NCBI RefSeq assembly: GCF_000004075.3
Contig: NC_026657.2
Span: 29,668,408-29,732,407, forward strand
DNA length: 64,000 nt
Source of the DNA: Cucumis sativus
Taxonomy: Eukaryota; Streptophyta; Magnoliopsida; Cucurbitales; Cucurbitaceae
Direction of reading: 5' to 3'
Shown here piece by piece: positions 1,038 through 56,488 of this stretch. Made by a program: the position numbers and the translations under genes. Numbering within the stretch: position 1 is the first letter of the stretch; each line of letters begins with the position of its first letter. Under the pieces are notes generated by a model, which was given only the letters and a program-made list of their open reading frames with translations, was not told the DNA's origin and did no database searches.

Positions 1038-4000
1038 ATGGCTGCTCTGTAAGTAATGCAAGTTTAGTGAATGATTTTTCAACTTTCTTTTTTTTTTTGT
1101 TTTTTGTTTTTGTTTTTTCCGCTCATGAATTTGATTCTTGTTGCAGTGTGGAAGAGATTTTACCTCCGTCGTTGGATGCTACTGCCGAACAACCTCCTCT
1201 GTTCGACGGAACTACTAGGTTTGCTTTGTTTTGCTTTGTTTATCCGTTGAAATCTCCGATTCTCGCTGATTGAGCTTCTTTTTATCGCTAAATTCACTCG
1301 CAATTTAAGACTTCTTCATCTCTTATTTGAAGGTTGTATACTGCTTACATTTGCCCCTATGCTCAACGTGTGTGGATCACCCGGAATTACAAGGTTTGCT
1401 TCTTCATTTCTGGGTTCCGAGACCTTGTTTTCTTGCCTACATTTAGTCCCGAGTTTCAGATTTGTGGCGAACTGGTCTCTAAATTTCATAATGGATTTCT
1501 AAACTTTCTAGTTTGTTTCTACTTTTATTAAGATTCACTAATTTGTCGAACGGCAAATCAAGAGTTTTAATGTTTATTGGACACCAAATTTAGCTTTGTG
1601 TATTACAGATTTGGTGTTTTTAATGATGTTGAATACATACTGAACTTAGTTATTAGATACAAAATTGAACGTTGAGGGATTAACTGAATACTTTTTTTAT
1701 AGTTTAAAGGTTTGTTAGATTCAATCATGAAAATATAGGAGCGGAACTTGTAATTTATAGTTTTATGGCTTAGTGATAGTTTAATTAGTATCAGAATAGA
1801 GGTTATCACACGTGGATTCCTGATTATCCACAGGTTAGAGGAACCTATTATTTTCTAACTAAAATAGGTTTCTGGGTCATTTGTAAATTGGTCACATGGG
1901 AAATTTGACTTTATTATTATGAATTTTGTGTCTTTATCGGAAAACAGTTAGTTTTGTGTTTTGAAATTTGTTTAAGGTATTAAACAACTTGATTTAGAAG
2001 AACGAGGTTAATTTATTATTTGTCAGTTTGTGCACTGTCTTGTTATTTGCGGTTACATCAGCTGGATCCTCTCAATTTCATCTTCATGCATATAAAATTA
2101 AATATGCCTTGTGGTATCAACTTAATTGTTTTGGATTTAGTGGTATGGTAGCTGACAATTCTCTTCAACGCTTAATTAATTTCAACACGTGCTTGTCTCT
2201 ATCCACGGATCTAATTCCACTCTGAAGTGCTTTAGTTAGTTGAATTCTTTTTGGTTCTTGGTTTTGTTTTTGTTTTTTAATTTCGTACCATGCATTCTAA
2301 AAAAACGATCATTTACTGCTTTTTCGTTGGGTGCAGGGACTACAAGATAAAATTAAGCTAGTTCCTCTCAATCTTTTTAACAGGCCTGACTGGTATAAGG
2401 AGAAAGTATACTCTCCAAACAAGGTGATGATTCATGTTAAAGAATTGTATTCTTGTTCTTTGTTCAAATTGATTGCTCCTTGGTGATTATAAATTTGACA
2501 AGGTGAAAGCATATTGAAATTATTAAATTTATTGTAATCCATATGCTTAAACGTTTGAGTTAATTGGTAATTTAATACGGTACTAGAGTAAGAAGTTATG
2601 TGTTTGTACTGTTGTACCCTTGTAATGTCATTGTGTCTCTAATTAATATTGGTTTCTATTTGTTGAATTGATTGTTAATTTATTAATTGAGTATGCAGTT
2701 GAATTTCTTCTCATCTGCAGGTGCCATCTCTAGAACACAACGGGAAAGTTATTGGAGAAAGTCTTGATCTGATGAAATATGTTGATAGCCACTTTGAAGG
2801 ACCCTCTCTTCTCCCAAATGTAAGTAGAAAATAGTGTTCCGTTCTACTTGCTGCTTGAATCGCTCTATTGCTCATTTTTGTTATCCAAAACAAAATGTAG
2901 GATCCTGCTAAAAGGGAGTATGCTGAAGAGTTGCTATCCTACAGCGATACATTTAACGGTGCCATGATCTCTTCGTTTAAAGGTGACACTGCAAAGGAAG
3001 CAGGTAAAACTCTTTAGTTTTCAACTCAATCTATCTGATCTTCATACAGCCTTTTGGTTTGGTTATGATTTATGAAAATGGGCTGATTATACTACAAAAT
3101 TCAAGGTGCTCAATTTGATTACTTGGAAAATGCTTTGCAAAAATTTGATGGCCCCTTCCTCCTTGGAGAGATCAGTCTGGTAACTTGACCTTCCACGAGC
3201 CTTCCCTGGTTTCGTTTCCTTTGTATTTTCCAATCTCAAGATTCATGTTATCATAGGAATTTTAGGAAAGCTAGCCGGTTCAATGTTGTTTTAAGTTATG
3301 CTCAAACTCATGACTGGATTTTCTGTTTGTTTTTTTTTTTAGGTGGATATAGCATACATTCCATTTGTTGAAAGGTTCAGCGTTTTCTTATTAGAGGTTT
3401 TCAAAATTGACATCACTAAAGGAAGGCCTAAACTAGCTGCATGGATTGAGGTACGTTGTATGTTCATTTTGCATTCTAATTGTATGTATCAGTAGCTCAC
3501 TGTTGGAAGTTATGATTGTTTAAATAAATGGTTTCTTTTTCCTCGGCTCCAAAAGACAGAGTTTTCCAGCATTTGTTTTCTATGACAGTTCTCTGTTTCA
3601 TATAGAGTGTTTTTCACATACCTTTCTGAGTGATTTTGGAAGAACATAAATGTTTTTGTTTTCTCTAAAATATAACCTGGTTTGATCACAAATAAAAAAT
3701 TAAGTTGATTCTTCTTTTTTTCTTTTTTTTTGTGAAACTACTAGTGACTTTTAAAGTAATTGACTGAAAACCACTTTGAATTTAGAATCACTTTTAGATA
3801 TAGTGTGACTATAAACGAACTTATTTTAAGAAAGTACAAAAAGAAAAAAGAACTATGCCTTTTAATTGAGATTTTTTTCTTTCAAAATGTGCTTTACTAT
3901 AAAAGTACGTCTAACCCAGTTTTCTCACGTATTTTATCGGCTCTATTATCATACTTTTCTCCTCAAATTTCACTCCTATGTTAATGATGAAAGCTCTAAC

Positions 4001-4412
4001 GTTTTTTTTAATATTACTACACTTAGCGCTGTTTTTGTTTCGTGTCCTCTTATATATTCATCTGTACACACTTTTATTCTCCACGTCTATCGATGTCAAC
4101 TACGAAAAGGTGGACTATATCAAAATATATTTTCAAAAAAGAAATAGTTGGATGCTAATTTCTTGCTCTTCCAAAAAAAAAAAACATATCTAATATGGTC
4201 AGTTGATCCCATATTGTGATCTTACTGTAGGAGTTCAATAAGATTGATGCGTACAAACAAACAAAAGCTGATCCCAAACTAGTTGTTGAGGTTTACACAA
4301 AGCGATTTTTGGTAAGATTAATTTGGTTTCTTCTTGCTTATAGATCCCATTTTTGTAAGATTTTATTATCCCTGCCTTTTTTTGTTAACTATCTATACAT
4401 AATCAGGGTTAA
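1038..4412 (+). CDS. Lambda-class glutathione transferase (GSTL), copy 1
   Basis: Ten exons: 1038-1048, 1147-1218, 1333-1393, 2337-2423, 2721-2819, 2901-3003, 3106-3179, 3343-3450, 4231-4311 and 4407-4412, giving 233 residues in a continuous frame. The N-terminal thioredoxin-fold half carries CPYAQR with Cys35 at the active site, as in lambda GSTs, which use Cys rather than Ser and act as glutathione-dependent thioltransferases or deglutathionylases. A VPSLEHNG cis-proline segment and an ESLD glutathione-contact motif follow. The C-terminal half is the usual all-helical domain. No transit peptide is evident, so a cytosolic location is likely. The start follows a leader at 960-1037 and is the first ATG in frame. 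A close paralogue lies at 9050-11447, with identical exon phases and lengths in exons 2-9. The last exon codes only Gly and stop. Confidence 0.93.
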
Positions 4413-6337
4413 AAACGAAGGTTGAGGAGAAGGTTGAAGAGATGATATTACAAATAAACGACTTATATGTCGATGATAGTTCTGTACTTTACATCTTATT
4501 CTATGTATTTTGATAGTGTTTGAAGCATTTGCTTTGTTTAAGTTAGTCAATATATCTTAGGAATAAAATTTGAGGTTTCTCAAAATGTTAAGCTATGAAT
4601 TATTTTCTGCTTCAGTTATTATTAATATTAGCTGAAATTATTTTGTTTCCCGTTGGTTGATATATATAAATACACATCTAATACCATGCAAGAGAATACA
4701 AGGAGAAAAAAGGTTTATAATGAAAAAACATCGATTCTTGGTTGAATTATTCAATCTGCGTGTTTAATTATAATGGAAAAAAGGTTTATAATGTCTTTAA
4801 TTATACTTAAAGAGTAACAAATATTAATCAAACCCATATTGGGTTGAATTCGATCATGGTATGAGTTCGATGACATTTATCTTCAACAACTAGCTCCATT
4901 TCATGCAGGTCGAAGCATATTATAATTAATGATTGGCACAACTCTTTTTGCAATCGAATATTTGTTGTCGTTTATGTAGTACTTCAGACGAACTTTTAAT
5001 AGAGTCCAAAGGAGGACAAGTGAATCATACAATCATGGTATATGAACTTTGATTAATTTCGAACAATATAAGATAGACAAGAGGGGTCATGAAGTACACC
5101 GAGACATCTTAACTAGACTTTGATACATATGTGACATGAACCCTAATCACATCTCAAGGCCATAAGTTATGTAGTATTGATACATAAAAGATATGCAGTA
5201 AAAAAAGTAAACTAGAGATTAGAAGTTCAATATAGAAAGAAAAGAGTAGCAAGACGTTAGTGATAGTAACAAATATTTTTGGAAGATCGATCAAAGGGAA
5301 TGTATAAGTTTAAGATGACTCAAAAATCTTGCCACTATTATAAAAAGGTACTTCGAAAATATTGGTTGTTCTTATTCAATATCCTAATTGGAACACAACA
5401 TGAGAGAATGGATTACGAGAAAATAAAATATTTATTATTTTTTAATTATCATTTTCTTAATTATAACACAAACATAAAGCTAAGAGAATGAGTTATTAAG
5501 ATATATTTTTTTACCATTATTGCAAGTGAAATATAGCAACAGATATTACTTGGTGTTTCAGATTATCCATAATCATTTATATTTCACTTATCATCGTTTG
5601 TTATGCTTAGAAGACCTATTTATAGAAAATTTAAGTTTGTCTCTTTATTAAATCCGTATGTGTGTGTATCCTGTTGTCGTTTAATGTTTGAATAAGTTTG
5701 TGTGTTCATCGTTGTTGTCATTAAGTACATGTTTAAATGACTAGTAATTGATGTCTATGTGTGTTCCATCTTGTTGTCAATTAAGCAATGTTTAAGTCAT
5801 TTTAATTATATATTCGCCATTGTTTATTGCTAAATCAGAATAATAGTGTCGAAGATCCCACAGTTGTAAGGTTAAATTTTAGTAATTTAATTTGTATTCT
5901 TTTAATTATCTCACATATTTATTTTACTAATCTTTATCTCATCTAAAAGTACTGTCTAAACATAAACAAATGATTCTTAAATAAATTTATTTGATTTTAA
6001 ACATAAATGAATTATATCTATAAATAGTTAGATATAATGTTTGTATATAAATATAATATTAATGTTTGTATTATAATATTAAATTTTAGTATGCCATTAA
6101 TATCAAAATCAAGCACATTAATTAGACCATAACCATTATTTGCATTGGCTCACCATTGTCCACGCTACTCTTAAAACTAATTTACACCATATATATTCTT
6201 TTCTTTTCTTGGCTACAACCAATTCCTTTATTTTCAATATTTCCCTCTCTTACCTCTCTTTCAACGTATATAATACCAACCCAACATCATTCTAATTACA
6301 TTTTAACATTTTCTCTATTAGTCACACGATAACGATA
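4413..6337. repeat. GST 3' flank, then a copy of the RNase-flanking block
   Basis: Bases 4413 to about 4620 are the GST 3' flank, duplicated at about 8366-8580. From about 4818 to 5510 the sequence matches 14715-15430, which lies upstream of the intact T2 RNase. From about 5552 to 6030 it matches 16855-17340, which lies downstream of that RNase. The RNase body is missing between the two halves. Bases 6060-6337 match the region just upstream of the other two F-box copies. There is no intact gene here. Confidence 0.7.
5552..5572 (+). pseudogene. Terminal remnant of a T2 RNase copy (copy A)
   Basis: This short stretch corresponds to the last few codons and stop of the RNase at 16072-16875, including a DYP-stop ending. 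It sits exactly between the blocks that flank that gene. The rest of the coding region is absent, so this copy is dead. Its identity rests on collinearity of the flanks more than on its own length. Confidence 0.55.
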
Positions 6338-7440
6338 ATGGTGGTTGTTTATGACGTTATTCACATTCTATCTAAGCTTCCACCAGAATCTCTTCTTCGA
6401 TTCAAGTCTGTTTGCAAATCTTGGTATGCTCTTATCAACGACCCTAAATTTGTAACTAAACATCTTTTAGATTCTTTTTCCCACAAACAAGTTCTCATTA
6501 AGCGTGTCATCACCAACAACTCTGGCAAAAAAGAGCACGTGTTCTCCATCCTCAAATTTTCTCTTGATCGATCTGTGTCATCTGTTCTCAACGTTCCTCT
6601 ACCATTTCCTGAGAATCTTCAAGCTTTTCAAATTAGGGGCCATTCTCACGGCTTAATTTGTCTAATTAGTGTTGATAATCCTGATATTTTTCTTTCTAAT
6701 CCCATGACGAGGCAGTTTCATAAACTTCCACCAACAATTATTGTGGACCCTGAACCTCAAGATGTTGATTTAATGCCAGAGGCTATCGGGTTTGGGTATG
6801 ATGTGAAATGTGGGAATTTCAAAGTGGTTAGAGTTGTGAGTCATTGGATTGACTTGTTTGTTATCCTTCGAGAGTGGAAATTTATGATTTGAGAAAAGAT
6901 AGATGGAGAGAAATTAAAACTCTTGTTGATGCCAATGTATTTGGGCAACCTTCGTTTGACATGTATCACGAAGGAACATTTTACTAGTTTGGGATAACTG
7001 AAAAAGAAGTTATACTAACGTTCGACATGAGCAAAGAGGTTTTTGGAAAAATTTCAGTCCCAAAGAGTTTTGACTATTCCAATTATATGAATAATTATAG
7101 AAGTTTAATGGTTTTGAATGGATCTTTATGTCTATTTTCTTATCCACCATTTAAAAACAATGAAGTAGTTTTTGAGATTTGGGAGACGGAGATGGATGGA
7201 TCTGATGTTGTTTCATGGTCAAAGCTATGGACGATTGGCCCTTTTTTTGGAATTGAATATCCATTGTTGTTTTTAAGCTCGAATGAACTTTTAATGGAGT
7301 CAAAAGGACAATTGGTTTTGTATAATTGTAAACTCAACAAATCAAAGAGCTACAAATAAGAAGTGAAGCTATATGGGTAGACGACAATACAAAGCGATTT
7401 GAAGGCACTAATTTGTTCATTAAAAGTTTGATATCTGTTG
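6338..7440 (+). pseudogene. F-box/FBA gene copy A, broken
   Basis: It is a single-exon relative of the intact F-box gene at 12862-14004 and begins with the same MVVV start and F-box (HILSKLPPESLLRF). The frame shifts near 6858-6862, where the copy is short relative to the intact gene. A TGG is replaced by TAG near 6986, and the 3' end has lost the normal frame and stop. The residual open stretches are 6338-6892 and 7027-7359. Intact relatives are SCF ubiquitin-ligase substrate adaptors: the F-box binds SKP1 and the C-terminal F-box-associated (FBA) domain binds the target. Homology stops at about 7440-7457, where GST intron sequence begins. Confidence 0.85.
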
Positions 7441-7457
7441 AAAGTGAAGCTATATCA

Positions 7458-8580
7458 GTATTTGTTTTCTATGACAGTTCTCTGTTTCATATAGTGTTTT
7501 TCACATACCTTTCTAGGTGATTTTGGAAGAGCAGAAGTGTTTTTGTTTTCTCTTAAATATGCCCAATTTGATAACAAATAAAAATTAAATTGATTCTTTT
7601 TTCGTTTTGTGAAACTACTAGTATTAACTTTAAAGTAATCGACTGAAAACCACTTTGAAAATTTAGAATGACTTTTAGATTTAGGGTAACTATAAACGAA
7701 CAAGAAAATACAAAAGGGAAAAAAGAAAAAAAAAAACTATGCCTTTTAATTGAACCAAGTTTTTTTATAAAAAAATAGAGATTTTTTTTCTTTCAAAATG
7801 TACTTTCTTTAAAAGTATGTCTAACCCTGTTTTCTCACGTATTTTATTGGCTCTAGTATCATACTTTTCTCCTCAAAATTTGATTCATATGTTAATGTTG
7901 AGAGCTCTAACTTTCTTTTTATATATATTATTACACTATACCTTAATGCTGTTTTTTTTGTTTCATGTCCTTGTTCGATCTTATATAATATTCATTTGTA
8001 CACACTCTTATCCTCGACCTCTATCGATGTCAACTACGAATAGGTAGACGATATCAAAATATGTTTTAAAAAAAGAAATAATTAGATGCTAAATTTCTTG
8101 CTCTTCCAAAAAAAACATATTTAATATGGTGAGTTGATATTCCATATTGTGATCATCGTGGTAAAAATACTTTGTTGTAGGAGTTCAATAAGATTGATGC
8201 GTACAAGCAAATAAAAGTTGATCCCAAGCTAGTTGTTGAAGTTTATACCAAGCGATCTTTCGTAAGATTAATTTGTTTTGCACTTCTTGCATATAAATCC
8301 CATTTCTGGAAGATTTTACTATCCCATGCCTTCTTTTTTTTGTTAACTATCTATACATAATCAGAGTTAAAATCGAAGGTTGAAGAGAGGGTCGAAGATA
8401 TGATATTACAAATAAACGACTTAATATGTCGACGATAATTTTATACTTTCTATCATATTCTACGTATTTTTATAGTGTTTGAAGCGTTTACTTTGTTTAA
8501 GTTAGTTGATGTTTTAGGAATAAAATTTGAGGTTTCTCAACATGTTAAGTTATGAACTATTTTCTTCTTCTGTTATTGTA
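7458..8580 (+). pseudogene. 3' relic of a third lambda GST copy
   Basis: The sequence is collinear with 3572-4620 of GST copy 1, that is, the end of intron 8, exon 9, the short last exon and the 3' flank. The exon 9 equivalent is 8181-8261 and is still open with GT-AG borders. The last-exon equivalent (Ser codon then stop) is 8365-8370. Exons 1-8 are missing, because the F-box pseudogene and its flanks lie immediately upstream. The junction inside an intron marks an unequal-recombination or insertion breakpoint. Confidence 0.85.
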
Positions 8581-9049
8581 GGGTTAATGTCGTAATGTTG
8601 GATGCTTTCCATTTTTTACTTTGAAAAAGAAAAAAAGAATTTATACTCCTAGCATATTTAAGATTATTAATAAAGTGGGTAACATATATTTTTTAAAAAT
8701 TACAAATATAGCAAAATTACGTTGAAAATAATAATAGAAACGAGAAGAAGGTCGATATGATGGGCGTGAACGTCAATAGCGACACAAACAATAGAATTAT
8801 GATAATGAATTTGTAGAACAGAAATTGTTTTATATAATTCTTGTTTAATATTAAAGTACAACGGTCAACCGTCCAACAGCCGGCCTTCAGTTCCTTTTTG
8901 TTTTCTTTTGATTCAATGGTGGCTTTGTAGTTTGTACATGTCGCTACTCGCTTTCGATTCCTCCGATTCTCCATATACATCTCTTCACTGAATCAGCCAT
9001 AGTCTCACTATAGAATCTTCCCCGACATTTTCGCATTCGAAGAGCATCC
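8581..9049. other. Promoter/leader region of GST copy 2
   Basis: No coding exon is seen. A fragment of the dispersed 'tacaaatatagcaaaa' motif lies at about 8698-8720. The last 120 bases are C/T-richer and resemble the 5' leader of GST copy 1. Confidence 0.5.
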
Positions 9050-11447
9050 ATGGCTTCCGCAGAGTGAGTGGTTTTGATTCTGGAAGTGAAAATTTCTTAC
9101 CTCGCTCGTTTTTCTCCTCTTTCGTTTTCTTAATTTGATTTTTGTTTCGTTGCAGCGTGCAAGAAATTCCACCTCCGTCCTTGGATGCCACCGCCGAACA
9201 ACCTCCCTTGTTTGATGGAACTACCAGGTTCGTATTGATTTTGCCCTTATAATCTTAGGTTTTACTTCCTGGTTCAACTTTTTTTCTTTGATTATAATTG
9301 TTCTTTTTTCCTCCTCTGTTGTTTGAAGGTTGTATACTGCTTACATTTGCCCTTATGCACACCGTGCTTGGATCATCCGAAATTACAAGGTTATTGCCTG
9401 TTCAATTTTAGGTTGCAGGGCTTTTATACTCTTGCCTAATTGCTATGCATGCCTGTTTTATTTTACTTTCTTCATTACACTTTGTAACGAGGGTCGTAGG
9501 AATAGATAGGCATGAAAGGGTAGCTGTACCATAATCAATCAGCTCAGTGCAACTGTCCAAATTAATATCAATTTCGATGTTATCATTAAATAAATTTAAA
9601 GTTTCATCTTAAATAAATTTAAAGTTTCATCTCAAAATCAATCGATATTCGATAATCATGGTCCTAGTATTCAACAACATTCGTTTATATATGTATTTTA
9701 TGTAATTCTATGCTTTCTTTATGGGGGTGCAGGGACTACAACATAAAATTAAGCTAGTTCCTCTCGATCTTCGTAATAGACCTGACTGGTATAAGGAAAA
9801 AGTATACCCTACGAACAAGGTGATTCATGTTGAAGAAAATAATATTCTTGTTCCTTGCTTCATTTGCCCATTCTTTGTTAGTTAAAAATCACTCATCACA
9901 GTTAGATTTCTTCTAATCTGTAGGTTCCATCTCTGGAACATAATGGAAAGGTTATTGGAGAAAGTCTTGATCTGCTCAAATATATCGATAGCAACTTTGA
10001 AGGACCTTCTCTTCTCCCAGATGTAATGAAACAAATTGTTGGCTCATTTTGTCGTCGAGCATCTGCTTGTTGGTCGAATTACTCTATTTCTCATTTTGGG
10101 TTATCCGAATCAAAATGTAGGATCCTGGTAAAAGAGAATTTGCTGAAGAGTTGCTTTCCTACAGCGAAACATTTAACGGCGCTATAATCCATTCGTTCAA
10201 AGGCGACACCGCAAAGGAAGCAGGTAAAACTTTTCAACTTGATCGCTCTCTTCGAACAGATCTTTTGTTTTGAATAATATTGGCTGATTGGTGTAGAAAT
10301 TCTGCTAGGTGCTCAATTTGATTACTTGGAAAACGCTTTGGGACAATTTGATGGCCCGTTCCTCGTCGGAGAAATCAGTCAGGTAACTCGACCTTTTCGT
10401 AAGCCATTTCTTAGTATTGTTTCTTTTGTACTATTTCCATTAAAAAAAAGTCATCATGCCTTATGAACTTATGAAAATTAGCCTGTTTGATGTATTTGAA
10501 GTAAGTTGTGTATAAGTTTATAACAAGATTTCCTTTTCTTTAGGTGGATATAGCATACATTCCATTTGTTGAAAGGTTCCACATTTTCTTATTAGAGGCT
10601 CTCAATATTGACATCACGGAAGGAAGGCCCAAATTAGTTGCATGGATTGAGGTGCGTTGTATGTGCATTTTGCATTCTAGCAAAAGGATATTTCTAGCCT
10701 TATCTTGGATTAAAACCATTTCTAAGTCTTTCTTCCTAGCTAGATATATTTTCGTTCATCTTCAACATAATTCTAGAAAAAAAGTTTGATATAGATGATT
10801 ATTCAAATAGCTTCTAGCTAGAATGGTTATTGTTACCTTCTACTCTTTAACAGATCTTTTATAACCTATGGCCTTGTGAGTTCTTTAATTTATTCTCTCA
10901 CATTTTACACACTTTTATAAGTGTCAACAGTGATGAAAAGAAAAATGGTGAATGAGATCCTTTCCAACTCTTTCAAAGAAATCACATCAACATTGCTTCT
11001 ACTTAATCGTTTTTCTTTCTACATTATTCTAAATGTTTCGTGGTTGTAAAAATACTTTTGGTGTAGGAGTTCAATAAGATGGATGCGTACAAGCAAACAA
11101 AAGTCGATCCCAAGCTGGTCGTTGACATTTATACAATGGTATTCTTGGTAAGATTTGCTCTACAAAGTATCTATTATTTTGCTTATAAGTTCCATTTTAA
11201 AAAAATAACTTATGGCAAGATAAATTGCAAAAACCACCCTTAAAATATGTTGGTAGTTACAATTATACCAAACTGTTAAAATTGGACTCTCAAAGTAGCA
11301 ACTAAATTTTTGTCATTTGAAGGCCTAATTTTTTACGACTATAATTGAACTCTTGTGAGATTTTTTGTGCAATTTTGCCTTTGTTGCATATGCTCTTTTG
11401 AAAAAATTTCGTATGAATTTTCTAATCAGAGTAAAAAGAAGAAATGA
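9050..11447 (+). CDS. Lambda-class glutathione transferase (GSTL), copy 2
   Basis: Ten exons: 9050-9063, 9156-9227, 9329-9389, 9733-9819, 9924-10022, 10121-10223, 10309-10382, 10544-10651, 11067-11147 and 11430-11447, giving 238 residues. It is a tandem paralogue of the gene at 1038, with the same phases and the same lengths in exons 2-9. The catalytic motif is CPYAHR (Cys36), so the Gln that follows Ala in copy 1 is His here. The VPSLEHNG and ESLD glutathione-site motifs are kept. The C-terminus differs: exon 10 adds Ser and four Lys, where copy 1 ends in Gly. The likely role is cytosolic glutathione-dependent reduction or deglutathionylation in stress or flavonoid metabolism, known from the family and not shown here. 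Confidence 0.93.
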
Positions 11448-12261
11448 CGAAGAGGTCATGTATTGCCTCGTGACAAAGAAGTAGTGCAAGATATCGATGA
11501 GAACTTCTTGGGTTTGTACTTCTCATCTCCTTTCTCTATATTTTAGGATTCTAAATATGACTAGTTTGTGGTCAAAACGAACCTAAGTCAATTGCCATGG
11601 TGTTTGTATTATTAATTTCGAAGTCATAGTTCGATTTTCCTATCTAACATATTCTAAAAAGTTAATTCAAACACATCATAAATTTATGTCTTATAAATAA
11701 AATTTGAGGAACATTAGTTATTGGTAGATTTAGTATAGATCCAAGGGTCTTTCCCCCTCCCTTCGCAACTTTATGATCTTTATATATATACATAAAAGGT
11801 TCTTGATGGTGGTTTTCTTGAATGTTGGTTTGAAAACCAACGTTGTAGATTATCGAAATTTCAATTTCCATTATCTTCAATGTCGGTTTATCAAACACCC
11901 TCTTGTTTTCAATTATTGATAAACCCTCTTGTTTTCAATTATTGTTCACCATCTTCAATGTCGGTTTTGTTTGAACGTATTACAAAATTTAAAAGGAATT
12001 GTTTGTTGTAAGACGTGGTTGTTATAATATTTATCAATTTAAATATGTTTTACAAAACAAAAACAAAAAAATAGTTAAAAGATTTCTTTTCAAATGACTT
12101 TTTGACCCCAATGTGTCAAACGTAGTCTAAGACGTTGGCTACTCAATCCATACAAAAAATATATTTAGAACAATATTGTAAAACTTTTATTTATGTATTT
12201 GGAAATTTGGAAATTTGGAAATTTTGGGTAAGGGAGGTCCAACCAACGTTTATTAAAGCCT
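11448..12261. other. GST copy 2 3' flank and intergenic DNA
   Basis: No gene is visible. A direct repeat of about 25 bases with core 'ccctcttgttttcaatta' occurs twice in tandem at about 11896-11945, and short 'ggaaattt' repeats occur near 12200. The stretch at about 11585-11650 weakly resembles a tRNA-derived SINE B box, which is not enough for a call. Confidence 0.45.
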
Positions 12262-12861
12262 CTCGAAGCTATACTAATGTTTGTAGTAATATTAAATTTT
12301 AGTATGCCATTATTATCAAAATCAAGCACATCAATTAGTACTTCTCAAAAAGAATATTAAAAAAAAAGCCATTTTTGAACAATTTTATGTTCAATATAAT
12401 GGAAGAAAGGGATTGGTGGAGAAGAAAAAAAAGATGAGAGATTTAATTTAGAAATTTGTGCCCAACCACTACTATGAACTATCTATCCCTCTTTTGAAGT
12501 TTGAATGAAAGAAAAAGAGGATTCAATTCAGCCCAATATAGCATTGTGGAAAAAGAAAAAAACCCTAATTAAAGACATTATTGTGATGATCGATCTTCTC
12601 CATCTCCACAGCAGAGATTAGAGAGAGAGAGAGACCATAACCATTAGTTGCATTGATTCACCATTCTTCACGCTACCCTACAACTAATTTACACTATATA
12701 TATTCTTTTCTTTTCTTTTCTTGGCCTTAACCAATTCCTTTCTTTTCAGTATTTCACTCTCTTACCTCTCTTTGAACATATATATATATATATATAATAC
12801 CAACACAACACCGTTCTAATTACATTTTAACCTTTTCTCTATTAATCACACGATAACAATA
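12262..12861 (+). repeat. Duplicated 5' region of F-box copy B
   Basis: The block is collinear with about 17390-18030, upstream of F-box copy C, and its last 220 bases with 6120-6337 upstream of copy A. It contains shared landmarks: 'gatcgatcttctccatctcc', a GA run, and 'tatatatattcttttctttt' with a TATA-like core at about 12695. The block probably includes the F-box promoter, so all three copies were duplicated with their regulatory DNA. Confidence 0.7.
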
Positions 12862-14004
12862 ATGGTGGTTGTTTCTGACGTTGTGATTCATATTCTATCC
12901 AAGCTTCCACCAGAATCTCTTCTCCGATTTAAGTCTGTTTGTAAAACGTGGTATGCTCTCATCAACGATCCTAAATTTGTAACTAAACATCTTTTAGATT
13001 CTTCTCCCCACAAGCATGTTCTCCTTAAGCGTATCATCATCAACAACTCTGGTAAGAAAGAACACGTGTTCTCCCTCCTCAAATTTTCCCTTGATCGATC
13101 TGTGTCGTCTATTCTCGACATTCCTTTACCATTAATTGATCATGAGGATAATCCAGCTTTAAGAATTAGCGGCCATTCTCACGGCTTAATTTGTCTAAGT
13201 GATAGTACTCCTGATATTTTTCTTTGTAATCCCATGACAAGGCAGTTTCGTAAACTTCCGCCAACAGTTATTGTGGACGACTCTGAACCTCAAGATATTG
13301 ATGAAATGCAAGAGGATGCTGATTTAATGCCAAAAGCTGTTGGATTTGGGTACGATGTGCAATGTGGGGATTTCAAAGTGGTTAGAGTTATGAGTCATTG
13401 GAGAGACATTGTTTGTTATCCTTCAAAAGTGGAAATTTATGATTTGAGAAAAGATAGATGGAGAGAAATTAAAACCACAGTTGTTGCTGATGTATTTTGG
13501 CAGCCTTCGTTTGACACATATCACGAAGGAACATTTTACTGGTTTGGGCTAAGTGGGGTAAATGAAAAACAAGTTATGCTAACGTTCGACATGAGCAAAG
13601 AGGTTTTTGGAAAAATTTCACTCCCAGAGAGTTTTCACTTTTCGAAGGGTAATTATAGAAGTTTGATGGTTTTGAATGGATCTTTATGTCTATTTTCTTA
13701 TCCACCATTTGAAAACAATGAAATAGATTTTGAGATTTGGGAGATGGAGAAGGTTGAATATGATGTTGTTTCGTGGTCAAAGTTATTGACGATTGGCCCT
13801 CTTTTTGGAATTGAATATCCGATCGTGTTTTTAAGCGCGAATGAACTTTTAATGGAGTCAAAAGAAGGACAATTGATTTTGTACGATTTTAAAACTCAAC
13901 AAATCAAAGAGCTACATGTAAGAAGTGAAGCTATGTGGAAAGAAGACGCTATAAACTGGTTTGGAGGTATTAATTTGTTCGTGAAAAGTTTGGTATCCTT
14001 GTAA
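12862..14004 (+). CDS. F-box protein with F-box-associated (FBA) domain, intact copy B
   Basis: Single exon, 380 residues. Residues about 5-45 form an F-box (HILSKLPPESLLRF, then VCKTWYALINDP). The remainder shows the FBA repeat pattern, with GLICL, LCNPMTRQFRKLP, GFGYD near the middle, YDLRKDRWREI and FYWFGLSG. This is the architecture of the plant F-box/kelch-like At3g06240 group, which also includes the pollen SLF/SFB proteins of S-RNase self-incompatibility loci. The F-box should bind SKP1 in an SCF ubiquitin ligase, and the FBA part should choose the substrate, which is not predictable here. It is the only one of three local copies with an uninterrupted frame, and it lies about 2.1 kb upstream of the T2 RNase on the same strand. 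Assignment to true SLF rather than a general FBA protein is unproven. Confidence 0.92.
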   Translation: MVVVSDVVIHILSKLPPESLLRFKSVCKTWYALINDPKFVTKHLLDSSPHKHVLLKRIIINNSGKKEHVFSLLKFSLDRSVSSILDIPLPLIDHEDNPALRISGHSHGLICLSDSTPDIFLCNPMTRQFRKLPPTVIVDDSEPQDIDEMQEDADLMPKAVGFGYDVQCGDFKVVRVMSHWRDIVCYPSKVEIYDLRKDRWREIKTTVVADVFWQPSFDTYHEGTFYWFGLSGVNEKQVMLTFDMSKEVFGKISLPESFHFSKGNYRSLMVLNGSLCLFSYPPFENNEIDFEIWEMEKVEYDVVSWSKLLTIGPLFGIEYPIVFLSANELLMESKEGQLILYDFKTQQIKELHVRSEAMWKEDAINWFGGINLFVKSLVSL

Positions 14005-15960
14005 GTGTAAGGAGAAAATAAGGAGAAAATAATATGAGTTATGAGTTTTAATATTTTTTCAAACATAGTTTTATTTAAATAAAGTCTAGATGGAGCAAAT
14101 GCATATTGGTTTTGCTTTCAGAGACCATTTAACTTTCACACAAAAAAATATATTGTATTACTTTTGAGGCCAATAATTATTCTAAACACAAATTATTTTA
14201 CGATTTCACTTTTTTTTTCTTGCTGTTTTATGCTATTTTTCTCGTAATTGTAACAATAATTTCGGCCATTTCCAACTTGTAATATTTTCTTTTTATTAAT
14301 TAGCTTACTTTATTTAATATATATATGTGTGTGTAAAAATTGTTTTATTTTTACAATTTCAAAGCTCATCAAAATTAATTATTATTTATAATTAAAAGTC
14401 CATATATAATTATGTGTGTGAGAAAGTTATGAACTTTTAATTCAAAGATTCTATATATATTCAAATAACTTCTTCACATCACATTTGTGTCAATCTTGTA
14501 TGTGAGGGATCGAAGTATGAAAGATAAACACAACTTTGAGTGGAAGACAAGTTGTCAAACAGATTTTTAGGGTAACATTAATTAACATGGTTCACTATTT
14601 TATTTTCATTTTGGTATGCACTTCAAAATAAACTATTATATTCTATAAAATAATAAAATAATCTTTTTTATCTTATTGTTATTATGATAGTTGATTTTTT
14701 ATACTTCAAACAGAACCAAATATTAATCAAACCCATATTGGGTTCAATCTGATCCTGGTAAAACTTTCTATGAGTTCCATGCAATATTATTTTATCTTCA
14801 ACAAATATTTGCAATTAAATATTTGTTGTCGTTCGTGTAGTACTAGTTCAGACGAACTTTTAATGCAATCTAAAAGAGGACAAGTGAATCATACAATCAT
14901 GATATATAAACTTTGATTAATTTTTAACAATATAAGATAGACAAGAGGGATCGAGAGGTACATCAAGTGACATCTTAACTAGAGTTTGATACATATGTGA
15001 CACGAACCCTCATCACATCTCAAGGCCACAAGTTATGTACTATTGATACATAAAAGATATACAGTACAAAAACAAGCTAGAGATTAGAAGTTCAATACAT
15101 AAAGAAAAGAGTAACAAAAAACCTTCCAATTAAAGCGATTTTAGTGATATCGTAATTATAAAGTAACAAATATTTTTTGGAAGATTGATTAAAGGGAATG
15201 CATAAGTTTAAGATGTACTTTTAAAGATGACTCGAAAGTCTTGTCACTGTTATGAAAAAATACTTTGAAAATATTGATTGTTCTTGTTCAATATCTTAAT
15301 TGGAACACACATAAGAGAATGAACCACGAGAAAAGAAAATATTTATTGTTTTTTAATTATGATTATCCTAATTATAACACAACGTCAAAGAGAATAAGTT
15401 ATTATTATGAGATTTTCTTTACCATTATTTCAAATTAAACACAACACAAAGAGGCAATAGAGAAAAGGAGTGGGTGGGGGAATAGGGAATGGGCAGTGGA
15501 CGGTGGAGTGGGCAAGAGAATATACGTAATAGAAAAAAAAGAAAGAAAAGGGTTGCGGAGGTTTTGGGAGAAAAATGGAAAAATTAGAAGGAAAAGGAAG
15601 TGGAAGACATAAGAGAATGGAGAAAATGGTACGTAGAAAAATATCAAATTTTAATTTAACCGAATAATAAAAATACTCACTAATTAATAAGACTAATATC
15701 TCTTTTCCTTTGATATATTATTGATAAAAAAAATGAAAATATAAATTTATCAAAACTATATGTTGAATACAAAATTATACATATGTTTTTTTCTTTCTTA
15801 AAATAATAAATAAAAATATTTTTCACACACTTTCACTTTTTATTTAGTATCTAAAAAAAAAGAAAATCTTATATTTTAACCTTAGAAATCGACAGATATG
15901 TAAAAAGAACTAAGAAAGAAAAAATTGTATTATAATGAAACTTGCAAAGGATCAAGATGC
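14005..15960. other. Spacer between F-box B and the T2 RNase
   Basis: No exon was recognised. Bases about 14715-15430 are the counterpart of 4818-5510, so the RNase upstream flank exists twice. A purine-rich stretch lies at about 15440-15625. The rest is AT-rich. Confidence 0.55.
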
Positions 15961-15972
15961 CTATATATAAAA
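15961..15972 (+). promoter_or_regulatory. TATA box of the T2 RNase gene
   Basis: The sequence 'ctatatataaaa' lies about 110 bases upstream of the RNase ATG. It is followed by a CT-rich leader rich in 'cttctt'. Spacing and sequence fit a canonical plant TATA box with a start site near 15995. The start site itself is inferred. Confidence 0.6.
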
Positions 15973-16071
15973 AAGGGTTCTCTTCTTTAATCTCTCATTC
16001 TCCACTTCCATACTCCTCTTCTTCTTCTTCTTCCTTTTCTTCTTCATACTCAGTTTATTGTTCATTTCTCC

Positions 16072-16875
16072 ATGGCTCAACATATTTTCATTTTATGTCT
16101 TTTAAGTTCGTTGTTGTTTGTAAATGGCATTCCATTCGACTTCTTCCAACTAGTTCAACAATGGGGTCCAAACATATGTAGTCCTGCTGGCAGCAAGTGT
16201 TATGCTCAACCTCAACCCATGTTCACTATTCATGGGCTATGGCCAAGTAACTTTTCGACTGTCCCAATTTTGTGTCCAAGGACTAAAAAACTATTTCCAC
16301 AGGGAAAGGTTCCTATCTTCTTGATTTTTTTTTCTGTGCTTTTTTTTTTTCTTTCTATCTTTAGCAATCTATTCATTGTTTCAACACAATCTTTTATTCT
16401 ATTTTAGGTTACATCACTTGAACAACATCTAAATAAGTACTGGCCAGATGTAATAAGTGGAAAGAACTCCAACTTCTGGGAACATGAATGGAGAAAGCAC
16501 GCGGATTGTATAGACCCTCCTTTTACCATATTTTGGTATTTCGATATTTCTTTGAGACACCGAATGAATAAAACGTATGATCTGTTAACAATCTTAAATG
16601 ATGCTGGACTCAGTCACCAAACGCACAAAGATCTCATATCTCAAAACGTTCTAGACCCCATTAAAAATGCAACAGGAATGGAACCAGGCATCCGTTGCAA
16701 CATAAATGGTATAACTAAGAAGTTGCAATTGAAAGAAATTGTATTGTGTTTTGGCAATGATGGTACTACCCTCATAGATTGCCCTTCGTTTGTTAGCAAC
16801 ACTTGTACAAGTCAACCTAAATTTGTGTGGCTCCTCCCACAACAGAGTTCAGTAGGTGTTCCAGATTATCCATGA
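16072..16875 (+). CDS. Secreted T2-family ribonuclease, S-RNase/RNase MC1-like
   Basis: Two exons, 16072-16308 and 16408-16875, joined in phase 0, giving 234 residues. A hydrophobic signal peptide (about residues 1-19) precedes a mature start like that of S-RNases (FDFFQLVQQW). The first active-site block FTIHGLWP (51-58) keeps His54. The second block WEHEWRKHADC (103-113) keeps Glu106, Lys109 and His110, although the usual KHGTC reads KHADC. Eight Cys in the mature part would allow four disulfides. T2 enzymes cleave RNA through 2',3'-cyclic phosphates and are secreted or vacuolar. The single intron resembles S-RNase-class genes, while S-like RNases usually have more introns. Its neighbours are F-box/FBA genes on both sides. 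Whether this is a style-expressed S-RNase, a defence or phosphate-starvation RNase, or a seed RNase cannot be told from sequence. Confidence 0.92.
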
Positions 16876-17345
16876 CTCTTATTGTTTGTTATGCATACCA
16901 GACCTATTTATAGGAAATTTAAGTTTGTCTCTTTATTAAATCAGTATGTGTATTTACTTTTAAGTTTGTCTCTTTATTAAATCAGTATGTGTGTATTTAC
17001 TGTTGTCGTTTGATGTTTGAATAAGTTTGTGCGTTCGTCATTGTTGTCATTAAGTATGTGCTTAAATGATCAGTTATCAATGTTTATGTGTATTTCGGCT
17101 TGTTGTCATTAAGCAATGTTTAAATCATTTTAAGTATATGTTAGCTATTGTCTCCAAAGTCCCACATTTGTAAGGTTAAACTTTAGTAATTTAATTTGTT
17201 TTTTTTTATAATTTTAACACATTTTATCTAACATGTTTATTTAACTAATTTATATCTCATCTAAAAATTCTGTCCAAATGTAATTATATGAAATTAACAT
17301 CAACTATTCTAAACATAAATTATATCTATAAATAGTTAGATGGAG
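16876..17345 (+). repeat. RNase downstream block (tail repeat, copy B)
   Basis: This is the 3' flank of the intact RNase. It is also found at about 5565-6030, at about 19440-19830, and in inverted form at about 19935-20225. Shared landmarks are 'agacctatttatag', 'aaatttaagtttgtctcttt' and 'ttatatctataaat'. Within this copy a segment of about 50 bases with 'tttgtctctttattaaatca' is tandemly repeated near 16922-16990. Confidence 0.75.
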
Positions 17346-17389
17346 ATTCAAAATCTCAACTTTTTATTGTTACGTAGCCCTTAATAAAT

Positions 17390-18030
17390 TTGAAAATTTT
17401 GTCTGAGAGAGTCTCTCCAAGCTACTAATGTTTTTAATAATATCAAATTTTAGTATGCCATTAATATCAAAATCAAGCACATTAATTAGTACTTCCCAAA
17501 GAAGAAGAAGAAGAAAAAAAAGCCATTTTTGAACAATTTTATGTTCAATACAGTGGAAGAAAGGGATGGGTGGAGAAGAAAAAAAAGATGAGAGATTTAA
17601 TTTACAAATTTGTGCCCAACCAACCACTACTATGAACTATCTATCCCTCTTTTGAAGTTTGAATGAAAGAAAAAGAGGACTCAATTCAGCCCAATATGGC
17701 ATTGGGAACCCCCAAACCAAATATGGAAAAAGAAAAAAACCCTAAATAAAGACATTATTGTGATGATCGATCTTCTCCATCTCCACAGCAGAGATCAGAG
17801 AGAGAGACCATAACCATTATTTGCATTGATTCACCATTCTTCACGCTACCCTACAACTAATTTACACTGTATATATTCTTTTCTTTTCTTTCCTTGGCCT
17901 TAACCAATTCCTTTCTTTTCAGTATTTCACTCTCTTACCTCTGTTTGAACGTACGTATATATATAATACCAACACAACACCGTTCTAATTACATTTTAAA
18001 CTTTTCTTTATTAATCACACGATAACAATA
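17390..18030 (+). repeat. Duplicated 5' region of F-box copy C
   Basis: Collinear with 12262-12861 upstream of the intact F-box gene, including the 'gatcgatcttctccatctcc' and GA-run landmarks and the C/T-rich leader just before the ATG. It carries no separate gene. Confidence 0.7.
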
Positions 18031-19144
18031 ATGGTGGTTGTTTCTGACGTTGTGATTCATATTCTATCCAAGCTTCCATCTCCGATTTAAGTTTGTTTGC
18101 AAAACGTGGTATGCTCTCATCAACGACCCTAAATTTGTAACTAAACATCTTTTAGATTCTTTTCCCCACAAGCATGTTCTCCTCAAGTGTGTCATCATCA
18201 ACAACTCTGGTAAAAAAGAACATGGGTTCTCCATCCTCAAATTTTCCCTTGATCGATATGTGTCGTCTATTCTCGACATTCTTTTACCATTTCATGAGGA
18301 TAAAGTTTTAAATATTAGCGGCCATTCTTACGGCTTAATTTGTCTAAGTGATAGTAGTCCTGATATTTTTCTTTGTAATCCTATGACGAGGCAGTTATTG
18401 TGGACGACTCTGAACCTCAAGGTATTGATGAAATGCAAGAGGATGTTGATTTAATGCCACAAGCTGTTGGATTTGGGTACGATGTGCAATGTGGAGATTT
18501 CAAAGTGGTTAGAGTTATGAGTCATTGGAGAGAAGGTGTTTGTTATCCTTCAAAAGTGAAAATTTATGATTTGAGAAAAGATAGATGGAGAGAAATTAAA
18601 ACCATTGTTGATGTCGATGTATTTTGGCACCCTTCGTTTGACACGTATCAGGAAGGAACATTTTACTGGTTTGGGCTAAGTGGGTTAAATGAAAAAGAAG
18701 TTATACTAACGTTCGACATGAGCAAAGAGGTTTTTGGAAAAATTTCAATCCCATAGAGTTTTCACTTTTCCAATCACAAGAATAATTATAGAAGTTTGAT
18801 GGTTTTGAATGGATCTTTATGTCTATTTTCTTATCCACTATTTGAAAACAATAATGAAATAGATTTTGAGATTTGGGAGATGGAGAAGGATGAATATGGA
18901 TGTTGTTTCGTGGTCAAAGTTATTGACAATTGACCATCTCTTTGGAATTGAATATCCAGTGTCGTTTTTAAGTACGAATGAACTTTTAATGGAATCAAAT
19001 GAAGGACAATTAGTTTTGTACAATTGTAAAACTCAACAAATCAAAGAGCTAAAAGTAAGAAGTGAAGCTACATGGATAGAAGAAACTACAAACCGGTTTG
19101 AAGGTACTAATTTATTCGTCAAAAGTTTGGGATGGAGGAAATAA
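18031..19144 (+). pseudogene. F-box/FBA gene copy C, broken
   Basis: A very close relative of the gene at 12862-14004 with the same ATG context. Compared with that copy it lacks about 11 bases inside the F-box near 18078 and about 22 bases near 18395, both shifting the frame. An in-frame TAG ends the middle segment at about 18754. The remaining open pieces are 18260-18454, 18400-18756 and 18866-19144. High similarity in coding and upstream DNA points to a recent duplication. An SCF adaptor function is therefore unlikely for this copy, though a truncated peptide could still be made. Confidence 0.88.
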
Positions 19145-19292
19145 TATGGGTTATGGGTCATAGTATTTTTCAAACTTAGTTTGATTTAAATAAAGATTAG
19201 ATGGATGGGAGCAAATGTTGGTTTTGTTTTGAGAGATCATTTAAAATATATTGTATTAGTTTGGAGGGAAATTGTTATATAATTTAAAAGCA

Positions 19293-19295
19293 CAA

Positions 19296-19331
<36 letters not shown>

Positions 19332-19332
19332 A
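19293..19332. repeat. (TA)n(TG)n microsatellite
   Basis: A run of TA followed by a run of TG dinucleotides lies just downstream of F-box copy C. It is a likely length-polymorphic site. Confidence 0.9.
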
Positions 19333-19393
19333 TTGGTTTTTTACTCCATCCCGACTACTTTTGGTTTACTGCTTTTTGGTTGGGTGGAGGGAT

Positions 19394-19435
19394 ATTAAAT
19401 TTTGTCAGCGACAGTTGTACAAGAAAACCGGATCG
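19394..19435 (+). pseudogene. 3' remnant of a T2 RNase copy (copy C)
   Basis: The stretch aligns with the part of the intact RNase that encodes the C-terminal Cys region (16785-16825). It is followed by the same tail repeat that follows the intact gene. Upstream RNase sequence is missing, so this is a fossil fragment. Confidence 0.6.
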
Positions 19436-19439
19436 TTTA

Positions 19440-19830
19440 TTATCCATTATCATCTATATTTCACTTCTTATCGTTTCTTTTGCATAGAAGACCTATTTAT
19501 AGGAAATTTAAGTTTGTCTCTTTATTAAATCAGTATGTGTGTGTTTACTCTTGTCGTTTAATGTTTGAATAAGTTTGTGTGTTCGTCATTGTTGTCATTA
19601 AGTATGTGTTTAAATGACCCGTTATTGATGTTTATGTATGTTCCGGCTTGTTATCATTAAACAATGTTTAAATCATTTTAAGTATATGTTCCTATTTTTT
19701 GTTGCTAAATAAGAAAAATAGTCCCCAAAGTCCCACGTTTGTAAGGATATATCTCATCTAAAAATTCTGAATGATTCTTTAAAAAAATTAACATCAACTA
19801 TCCTAAACCTAAATTATATCTATAAAATAT
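19440..19830 (+). repeat. RNase tail repeat, copy C, left arm of an inverted repeat
   Basis: Matches 16876-17345 in order, including 'agacctatttatag' and the end segment with 'aacatcaactatcctaaacc'. The reverse complement of most of this segment lies at 19935-20225, making this the left arm of a large inverted repeat with a spacer of about 100 bases. Confidence 0.75.
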
Positions 19831-19934
19831 CACAACTTTGATTAATTTGGAACAATATAAGATAAAAATTATAAAAAAAAATTGATTAATTTTGAACAAA
19901 ATAAGATAAAAATAAAATATTGTGATTTGAATTT

Positions 19935-20225
19935 TCATCTAACTATTTATAGATATAATTTAGGTTTAGGATAGTTGATGTTAATTTTTTTAGAATCATT
20001 GATATAGATTAGTAAAATAAATATGTGAAATAAAAAAGAAATATAAATTAAACATAAACATCAATAATCAAATCATTTAAACACATACTTAACAACAACA
20101 TCGAGCACACACAAACTTATTTAAAACAACAATAAATACACACATACCTATTTAATAGAGAGAAAAACTTAAATTTCCTATAATTAGATCTTCTAAACAT
20201 AACAAATGATAAGGTGAAATAAATG
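19935..20225 (-). repeat. RNase tail repeat, inverted copy D, right arm of an inverted repeat
   Basis: Read on the minus strand this segment reproduces the tail repeat: 'atttcac...atcatttgttatg', 'aggaaatttaagttt', 'gtatgtgtgtatttattg' and 'gtttaaatgatt'. It is more diverged from copy C than copies B and C are from each other. Together with 19440-19830 it could fold into a hairpin of roughly 300 imperfectly paired bases. Confidence 0.75.
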
Positions 20226-43433: not shown

Positions 43434-43829
43434 CGCGGCAAAGATCCCAATTCCAGATTGAAACCAAGAATTCGTTCCCTGGTCTGCATCCACTGATTCA
43501 CTTCACTGGCCACCCATCAGTTCATACCTTCAGATATTCGTATCTGACGAACTTTACAGGCCTCAAAATCTGCCACGTCATCCGAATCATCGTCTTTTGT
43601 GGGCCCGTTATATCCCACGTCGACTAATTTGGGCTTTTCTTTAGCGTCGTCGTGAATTGGACCGAGCCATCCAGCATTTTTAGTTTCTGGCCCAGATAGT
43701 TATAAACTGGCTGTGTACCAAAAATAAGTTATATTAGAAATTTGAGAACGAAGGTGGATTTATTTGTCCTACAGTTTTAGTGATGTATTCGTATGGATTG
43801 CTTAGATAGTTATAAACTGGCTGTGTACC
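43434..43829. other. Promoter side of the small membrane protein gene
   Basis: GC-richer up to about 43640 with GGGCCC and CCACGTCG/CCACGTCA-type ACGT motifs ('gccacgtcatcc' near 43573), as expected of a promoter for the minus-strand gene. A short direct repeat, 'agttataaactggctgtgta', occurs at about 43699 and 43808. Confidence 0.5.
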
Positions 43830-56462: not shown

Positions 56463-56488
56463 GTTTCTCCACATTCACTCGCCCCAAA

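What the first reader, a model, noticed from the sequence alone, without database searches (positions are those of the whole stretch)
6338..19445. S-locus-like pairing of a T2 RNase with F-box/FBA genes
An apparently whole, secreted, single-intron T2 RNase (16072-16875) with an S-RNase-like mature start and active site lies between F-box/FBA genes at 12862-14004 (intact) and 18031-19144 (broken), with another broken F-box at 6338. S-RNase self-incompatibility loci in several eudicot families are defined by exactly this pair: a pistil T2 RNase with few introns, and linked FBA-type F-box genes duplicated in tandem. If the host is a self-compatible cucurbit, this could be a relic or repurposed S-locus-like module. 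Chance linkage of two large families is the main alternative.
Basis: partly seen in the sequence, partly recalled or inferred. Interest (0 to 1): 0.8.

Follow-up and report, generated by a model that had tools for sequence, protein, structure and literature searches.

The report
Decayed S-locus-like RNase and F-box array
A plant chromosome carries an RNA-cutting enzyme gene beside F-box genes, duplicated together and mostly decayed; it may be a leftover of the machinery plants use to reject their own pollen, but the F-box half of that reading could not be tested here.

Summary
A single-intron T2 RNase (16072-16875) lies between an intact F-box/FBA gene (12862-14004) and a broken one (18031-19144); another broken copy is at 6338-7443. 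The RNase has class III (S-lineage) marks: one phase-0 intron, no 'pattern 4', basic pI, fewer cysteines than class I enzymes. Against this, whole-length scores rank bitter-gourd MC1 and class I enzymes above pear S-RNase, and a six-sequence tree is weak. The F-box has F-box and F_box_assoc_1 domains, but no S-locus F-box sequence was held, so the SLF/SFB clade test was not done. Two of three F-boxes are dead, the copies are young (dS 0.11-0.19), and a lambda glutathione transferase shares the duplications. Best reading: a decayed S-like (paralogous or relict) RNase-F-box locus, a new member of a kind reported in other eurosids; chance neighbours duplicated together is nearly as likely. An active S-locus is improbable. 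The host was not identified.

The parts
1148..4311 (+). GSTL1: lambda-class glutathione transferase gene, exons 2-9 recognisable, no stop in aligned codons; exons 1 and 10 not found by this alignment
   Evidence: exon-by-exon match to GSTL2, 234 codons, dS 0.414, dN 0.082, omega 0.20
4947..5531 (+). copy of the DNA upstream of the RNase (matches 14808-15439)
   Evidence: blastn 80%, 2e-167; K 0.120
5537..5572 (+). relic of the RNase C-terminus (last 11 codons plus stop); rest of that RNase copy deleted
   Evidence: QQILLGVSDYP* against QQSSVGVPDYP*; contiguous with the 3' flank; as bare nucleotides it does not beat shuffles, 150 of 500 reached its score
5562..6033 (+). copy of RNase 3' flank leading into F-box copy 1
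   Evidence: matches 16891-17341 and 19439-19752
6338..7443 (+). F-box/FBA copy 1, pseudogene
   Evidence: 1-bp indels and in-register TAG against copy 2; Pfam F-box and FBA_1 in fragments
7456..8577 (+). extra copy of the GSTL1 3' end and downstream DNA (matches 3567-4620)
   Evidence: blastn 81% over 1141 columns; K 0.095
9050..11447 (+). GSTL2: intact ten-exon lambda glutathione transferase (242 aa); exon ends chosen by hand from splice sites and frame
   Evidence: conceptual translation; PDB 4pqi lambda3, 347 bits; Pfam GST domains
12862..14004 (+). F-box/FBA copy 2, intact, 380 aa, intronless
   Evidence: F-box 5-40, FBA_1 222-319; TIGR01640 105-345, 94.4 bits
14808..15439 (+). DNA upstream of the RNase that is shared with unit 1
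   Evidence: matches 4947-5531
16072..16308 (+). RNase exon 1 (hydrophobic start, FTIHGLWPSN)
   Evidence: PF00445 37.1 bits
16309..16407 (+). RNase intron, 99 nt, GT-AG, phase 0
16408..16875 (+). RNase exon 2 (WPDVISG, HEWRKHADC) to stop
   Evidence: PF00445 82.4 bits
16877..17341 (+). RNase 3' flank, also present beside F-box copy 1 and after F-box copy 3
   Evidence: blastn 75-93%
18031..19144 (+). F-box/FBA copy 3, pseudogene
   Evidence: 11-bp and 22-bp deletions, 1-bp insertion, in-register TAG
19398..19430 (+). relic of RNase coding DNA near the 3' end (NFVSDSCTRKP against SFVSNTCTSQP)
   Evidence: nucleotide score 38 against a maximum of 32 in 500 single-base shuffles; translation; tblastn alone gives E 7.1
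19439..19826 (+). third direct copy of the RNase 3' flank
20001..20221 (-). inverted copy of the RNase 3' flank
   Evidence: matches 5580-5760 and 5886-5938 reversed, 79-89%; K 0.144

Best explanation
This is a decayed S-like locus: a class III (S-lineage) T2 RNase and an FBA-type F-box gene that descend from, or are paralogous to, an S-RNase/SLF pair and no longer run self-incompatibility. Shown: the intact RNase, one intact and two dead F-box copies, two RNase relics, and duplication of RNase, F-box and a neighbouring lambda-GST in shared segments. Inferred: the RNase is secreted and active as an S-like enzyme (defence, nectar or phosphate recycling); F-box copy 2 is an SCF substrate receptor whose ancestors marked such RNases for degradation; after loss of selection for pollen recognition the tandem copies decayed, one RNase copy by a 1.4-kb deletion.
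For: Class III marks of the RNase: one phase-0 intron, the pattern that PMC5598434 gives for most class III genes and, within class I, only for grasses; six-position pattern 4 absent, 7 cysteines in the aligned part and pI 8.20, on the side of pear S3-RNase and MC1, while LE and NW (class I) and their 60%-identical relative NGR3 have pattern 4, 9 cysteines and pI 4.4-4.8; FTIHGLWPSN is a motif-1 string listed for several Fabaceae S-lineage genes. Co-duplication: collinear upstream DNA, RNase 3' end, 3' flank and F-box in unit 1 and around the intact RNase, with similar divergence K 0.11-0.15. F-box plus F_box_assoc_1. Precedent: class III RNases with linked, partly broken F-boxes in Citrus, Theobroma, two Gossypium and Phaseolus, and an Antirrhinum S-like locus with two S-like SLFs, one a pseudogene.
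Against: No SLF/SFB sequence was available, so the decisive F-box test is missing. Whole-length similarity ranks MC1 (120 bits), NW (112) and LE (109) above pear S3-RNase (89) and SF11 (60). The six-sequence tree splits window plus S3 from MC1 plus LE/NW/NGR3 with only 78% support. The F-box copies are young (dS 0.105-0.188) and share duplications with GSTL, so tandem growth alone could explain the array. No RNase trace was found left of F-box copy 2 or right of F-box copy 1. Chance RNase/F-box adjacency is 6.5-40% per genome in a rough model. PMC5598434 reports F-boxes near class I and II RNases too.
Confidence: 0.48

Rival explanations
1. Chance neighbours: a class III S-like RNase happened to lie between a lambda-GST and an unrelated fast-evolving FBA-type F-box gene, and local tandem duplication then copied all three. 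No functional or historical tie to an S-locus.
For: GSTL copies are part of the duplicated segments; rough chance of at least one T2 RNase with an immediate F-box neighbour is 6.5-40% (using 13-28 RNases, 207 F-box genes of cucumber, a recalled gene number of 23,000-27,000 and an assumed 70 FBA-type genes as the lower case); F-boxes also flank class I and II RNases; F-box branches 2 and 3 do not differ significantly from neutral codon change (p 0.29 and 0.20).
Against: The RNase carries class III marks, and PMC5598434 reports that all F-boxes flanking class III RNases in its Fig. [quoted passage not shown] an RNase or RNase relic adjoins each of the three F-box copies on at least one side.
Confidence: 0.42
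2. Active S-locus: the RNase is a pistil S-RNase and F-box copy 2 the pollen determinant.
For: Class III marks, mature pI 8.14-8.27 just inside the printed S-RNase range of 8.10-9.73, full-length 8.06 just outside, linked F-box.
Against: HEW motif upstream of C3, which S-like enzymes generally have though 7 of 36 Coffea/Psilanthus S-alleles also do; two of three F-boxes dead; young tandem copies; array of about 15 kb with ordinary genes to its right. Haplotype structure could not be examined.
Confidence: 0.03
3. Ordinary class I S-like RNase (LE/RNS1 kind) that only looks S-RNase-like, beside F-box genes.
For: Higher whole-length scores to NW and LE than to S-RNases; HEW motif.
Against: Lacks the intron pattern, pattern 4, two cysteines and acidic pI of class I.
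Confidence: 0.05

Closest known systems
Type-1 S-like locus of Antirrhinum chromosome 7 (PMC8774079, section 7 read)
   [quoted passage not shown] not the SI locus
   Different: there the F-boxes are placed in the SLF subfamily by phylogeny and expression was measured; here neither; here a GST gene is part of the duplicated segment
Putative relict S-loci of Citrus, Theobroma, Gossypium, Phaseolus (PMC5598434, section 17 read)
   Same: class III RNase with tandem F-boxes, some with in-frame stops, more than one RNase copy
   Different: 6-15 F-boxes searched within 2 Mb there, three within 13 kb here; F-box clade membership shown there only
Fabaceae S-lineage RNases with nearby F-boxes (PMC4451870, sections 6 and 8 and part 1 of section 5 read)
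   Same: one or two introns, motif 1 FTIHGLWPSN in several, no pattern 4, F-boxes nearby; the authors found no evidence that they run SI
   Different: there expression and diversity data exist
RNase MC1 of Momordica charantia (PDB 1bk7, 1j1f)
   Same: best whole-length match, lacks pattern 4 and has 7 aligned cysteines
   Different: 37% identity; FTIHGLWPQQ, more basic; the small tree puts it on the LE/NW side; its gene surroundings were not looked at
Pear S3-RNase (PDB 1iqq)
   Same: FT[IV]HGLWPSN, 7 aligned cysteines, no pattern 4; best match of a 52-aa N-terminal piece
   Different: 34% identity; KEWMKHGSC instead of HEWRKHADC; named an S-RNase in the PDB entry

Membership tests
Class III (S-lineage) T2 RNase | Ribonuclease T2 domain with both catalytic motifs | tested here: met
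   PF00445 in both exons; IHGLWP and HEWRKH
Class III (S-lineage) T2 RNase | single intron at position 5, phase 0 (pattern III-C) | tested here: met
   one 99-nt intron, phase 0, between motif C2 and WPDV; that this is 'position 5' is inferred from the text of PMC5598434, its figure was not seen
Class III (S-lineage) T2 RNase | amino acid pattern 4 absent | tested here: met
   six-position pattern absent; the four-position form does match CPRT at 68-71, at a different alignment position from the CPSxxG of LE, NW and NGR3
Class III (S-lineage) T2 RNase | basic isoelectric point (above 7.5) | tested here: met
   8.06 full, 8.14-8.27 mature; criterion
Class III (S-lineage) T2 RNase | falls in class III in a full T2 tree | tested here: inconclusive
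   only six sequences; window with pear S3, UFBoot 78
Class I T2 RNase | introns at 2 and 5 (and 9), pattern 4, acidic pI as the rule | tested here: not met
Functional S-RNase | pistil-specific expression, high allelic diversity, cosegregation with SI | not testable with these tools
   no expression or population data
Functional S-RNase | absence of the S-like HEW motif | tested here: inconclusive
   HEW present; also in 7 of 36 Coffea/Psilanthus S-alleles
SLF/SFB S-locus F-box | F-box followed by FBA domain | tested here: met
SLF/SFB S-locus F-box | membership of the SLF clade | not testable with these tools
   no FBA-type protein among the 2 PDB hits at E up to 1; none confirmed in one viral contig scan; PMC4451870 states that no typical amino acid pattern is known
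SLF/SFB S-locus F-box | pollen expression | not testable with these tools
   no expression data
Type-1 S-like locus | class III RNase closely linked to F-box genes | tested here: met
   2.1 kb from F-box copy 2 and 1.2 kb from F-box copy 3 (coordinates)
Type-1 S-like locus | linked F-box belongs to the SLF subfamily | not testable with these tools
   as for SLF/SFB above

The most novel reading that the evidence does not exclude
An RNase and its F-box partner have been kept as a cognate pair outside pollen rejection. If F-box copy 2 is paired with the RNase to its right, one intact pair survives while the partners in the other units have both gone, as if the F-box were still needed to hold its neighbouring RNase in check. 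With three units and a pairing that can be drawn in more than one way, the pattern is suggestive only.
Probability: 0.06. Interest if true: 0.8.

Novelty: new member of a known kind. Interest (0 to 1): 0.42.

Why it matters
If the F-box proves to be an SLF-subfamily gene and the host a cucurbit, this would add a relict type-1 S-locus to a family for which my paper searches listed none, and support loss of an ancestral system there. The co-duplication of RNase and F-box gives a clear local history that comparison among related species could date. If the F-box is outside the clade, it is a useful warning on how readily such pairs arise.

Tried and rejected
Whole-genome search for other T2 RNases: no genome held. 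Relatives of the F-box in viral contigs (8 stretches matched a pattern, none confirmed) and of RNase exon 2 in bacterial and archaeal genome contigs (93 matched, none confirmed), as expected for a plant. AlphaFold model of the F-box without relatives: mean pLDDT 34, unusable, so no fold search was made. Class I identity of the RNase was considered because of the score ranking and set aside on intron, pattern 4, cysteine and pI evidence. An active S-locus was set aside as above. The idea that the RNase 3' flank is a dispersed repeat was considered: at E 1e-8 it occurs within the window only in this array, and two of its copies adjoin RNase coding relics; the rest of the genome could not be checked. 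Paper searches on cucurbit T2 RNases showed no such locus in the rows seen: 23 of 23 listed; 0 found; 15 of 144 listed; 7 of 7; 15 of 152; 4 of 4; 0 found; beyond the papers named in the report I saw titles and starts of abstracts. Passages of PMC7098457, PMC10223774, PMC7829749, PMC12445865, PMC12396629, PMC12403065, PMC5479900 and PMC8325692 were looked at for cucurbit mentions or pattern definitions and added nothing on such a locus.
Full report
What is there. The RNase gene at 16072-16875 is whole: two exons joined by a 99-nt GT-AG intron in phase 0, 234 aa, three N-glycosylation sequons, PF00445 in both exons. A TATA-like stretch lies about 110 nt upstream of the start codon (seen, not scored). 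F-box copy 2 (12862-14004) is open and intronless, 380 aa, with F-box, FBA_1 and F_box_assoc_1 domains. Copies 1 (6338-7443) and 3 (18031-19144) are collinear with it but broken by several lesions each; 8 of the 11 alignment gaps of copy 1 and 4 of the 7 of copy 3 are multiples of three, so both may have stayed functional for a time after duplication.

Self-comparison shows that the stretch 4947-6033 plus F-box copy 1 is the same segment as 14808-17341 plus F-box copy 3, except that 15440-16839, the DNA just upstream of the RNase and almost its whole coding region, is missing. What remains at 5537-5572 reads QQILLGVSDYP and a stop against QQSSVGVPDYP and a stop in the intact gene; in all six frames of the window only these two places match at 8 or more of 12. 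A second relic after F-box copy 3 (19398-19430) keeps NFVSDSCTRKP and is followed by the RNase 3' flank; its nucleotide score of 38 was reached by 0 of 500 single-base shuffles (maximum 32), whereas tblastn alone gives it E 7.1. The unit 1 relic, scored as nucleotides in the same way, did not beat shuffles (150 of 500 reached it) and rests on its protein frame and its contiguity with the 3' flank. A further, inverted copy of the 3' flank lies at 20001-20221. So the order is: RNase relic, F-box 1 (dead), GSTL pieces and GSTL2, F-box 2, RNase, F-box 3 (dead), RNase relic. No RNase trace was found left of F-box 2 or right of F-box 1.

Ages (unless stated). Flanks shared by unit 1 and the other units differ by K 0.111-0.147: DNA upstream of the RNase 0.120, RNase 3' flank 0.147 in both comparisons, F-box promoter 0.111 and 0.122. 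The GSTL 3' piece differs by 0.095. Between the younger copies: F-box 2 and 3 upstream DNA 0.049, their 3' flank 0.154 on 129 sites only, and RNase 3' flank of the intact gene against the copy at 19507-19690 0.080. The two lambda-GST genes differ by dS 0.414 with omega 0.20. F-box pairs have dS 0.185 (1-2), 0.105 (3-2), 0.188 (1-3) and omega 0.55-0.68. Polarised counts give omega near 0.51 for copy 1 with the shared branch of 2 and 3 (p 0.009 against neutrality), 0.65 for copy 2 (p 0.29) and 0.60 for copy 3 (p 0.20). So the intact F-box shows no significant purifying selection since its last duplication, on few changes (35). The similar ages of flank, RNase 3' end and F-box in unit 1 fit one co-duplication.

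Which kind of RNase. By whole-length phmmer the nearest solved structures are RNase MC1 (119.8 bits), NW (112), LE (108.7), pear S3-RNase (88.9), NGR3 (87.1) and SF11 S-RNase (60.2). S-RNases are known to evolve fast (recalled), so ranking by score may favour slower class I enzymes; I therefore used class marks from print. PMC5598434 (sections 14, 15, 17 read, passages of others) gives class I mostly introns 2, 5 and 9 or 2 and 5, single-intron class I genes only in grasses, and median pI 5.04; class III mostly a single intron at position 5 and basic pI. PMC4438004 and PMC4451870 (passages, and for the latter sections too) give pattern 4 as absent from S-lineage proteins. The window RNase has one phase-0 intron, no six-position pattern 4 (the shorter four-position form matches elsewhere in the protein) and pI 8.06-8.27. 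In an alignment of six sequences, LE and NW (class I) and NGR3 (60% identical to them) carry pattern 4, nine cysteines and pI 4.4-4.8; the window RNase, MC1 and S3 have no pattern 4, seven cysteines and pI 8.2-9.6. The tree of these six joins the window RNase with S3 against MC1 plus LE/NW/NGR3 at UFBoot 78, which is weak. I hold it to be class III at about 0.85. Against S-RNase function: HEW upstream of C3, which PMC3120821 (passages seen) says S-like enzymes generally have, though 7 of 36 Coffea/Psilanthus alleles have it too; the usual KHG is KHA here; pI is at the lower edge of the 8.10-9.73 S-RNase range.

The F-box. No FBA-type protein was among the two PDB hits at E up to 1 and no plant protein set was held, so clade membership in SLF/SFB is untested. 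PMC4451870 states that no typical amino acid pattern is known for S-locus F-box proteins, so motif reading cannot replace a tree. PMC5598434 reports that all F-boxes flanking class III RNases in its Fig. [quoted passage not shown] this raises the prior, it is not a test.

Chance. With 13-28 T2 genes per cucurbit (PMC9250077), 207 F-box genes in cucumber (PMC3030570) and a recalled 23,000-27,000 genes, at least one RNase with an immediate F-box neighbour is expected in 18-40% of genomes; with an assumed 70 FBA-type genes, 6.5-16%. Adjacency alone is thus not compelling.

Comparison with known systems. Zhao et al. (PMC8774079; sections 7, 8 and 11 read) describe S-like loci as class III S-like RNases linked to S-like SLFs, with an Antirrhinum example of two S-like SLFs, one dead. 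PMC5598434 lists relict-looking loci in five eurosids. PMC4451870 found S-lineage RNases with nearby F-boxes in legumes and no evidence that they run SI. Neither 'Cucumis' nor 'Cucurbit' occurs in the main text of PMC8774079 or PMC5598434; their figures and supplements were not seen and may hold such species. Searches for cucurbit S-loci listed no paper on one by title or start of abstract. PMC9250077 (sections 5 and 8 read) puts cucurbit class III genes in subclass III-C with Rosaceae, which holds the Rosaceae S-RNases; its S-locus annotation covers five other families.

Verdict. A real, co-duplicated class III RNase and F-box array, mostly decayed. S-like locus by descent 0.48, chance neighbours duplicated together 0.42, active S-locus 0.03, class I RNase 0.05.

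Noticed in passing
43822-44538 and 48366-49128; 47655-47918 and 49127-49402: Two repeat pairs of 74-78% identity, not identified.
   Followed up: no
19770-20000: Large imperfect palindrome (70% self-inverted match) beside the inverted copy of the RNase 3' flank; perhaps left by an inverted duplication.
   Followed up: no
1148-4311, 7456-8577, 9050-11447: Tandem lambda-class glutathione transferases, two gene copies and a 3' fragment; the pair has omega 0.20, in contrast to 0.55-0.68 for the F-boxes.
   Followed up: partly
37680-37800: Tandem 61-bp repeat (85%) inside an open frame with a WRKY domain.
   Followed up: no
32192-32668, 37064-37882, 56402-57658, 50900-51193: Ordinary genes to the right of the array: protein kinase, WRKY, ribosomal protein L4, a weak Myb match; 3 of the 7 window pieces scanned there had no Pfam match. 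Transposon content was not measured.
   Followed up: partly
16072-16875: CAS II reads HEWRKHADC; MC1, pear S3, LE, NW and NGR3 have KHG there (5 of 5). Effect on activity unknown.
   Followed up: no
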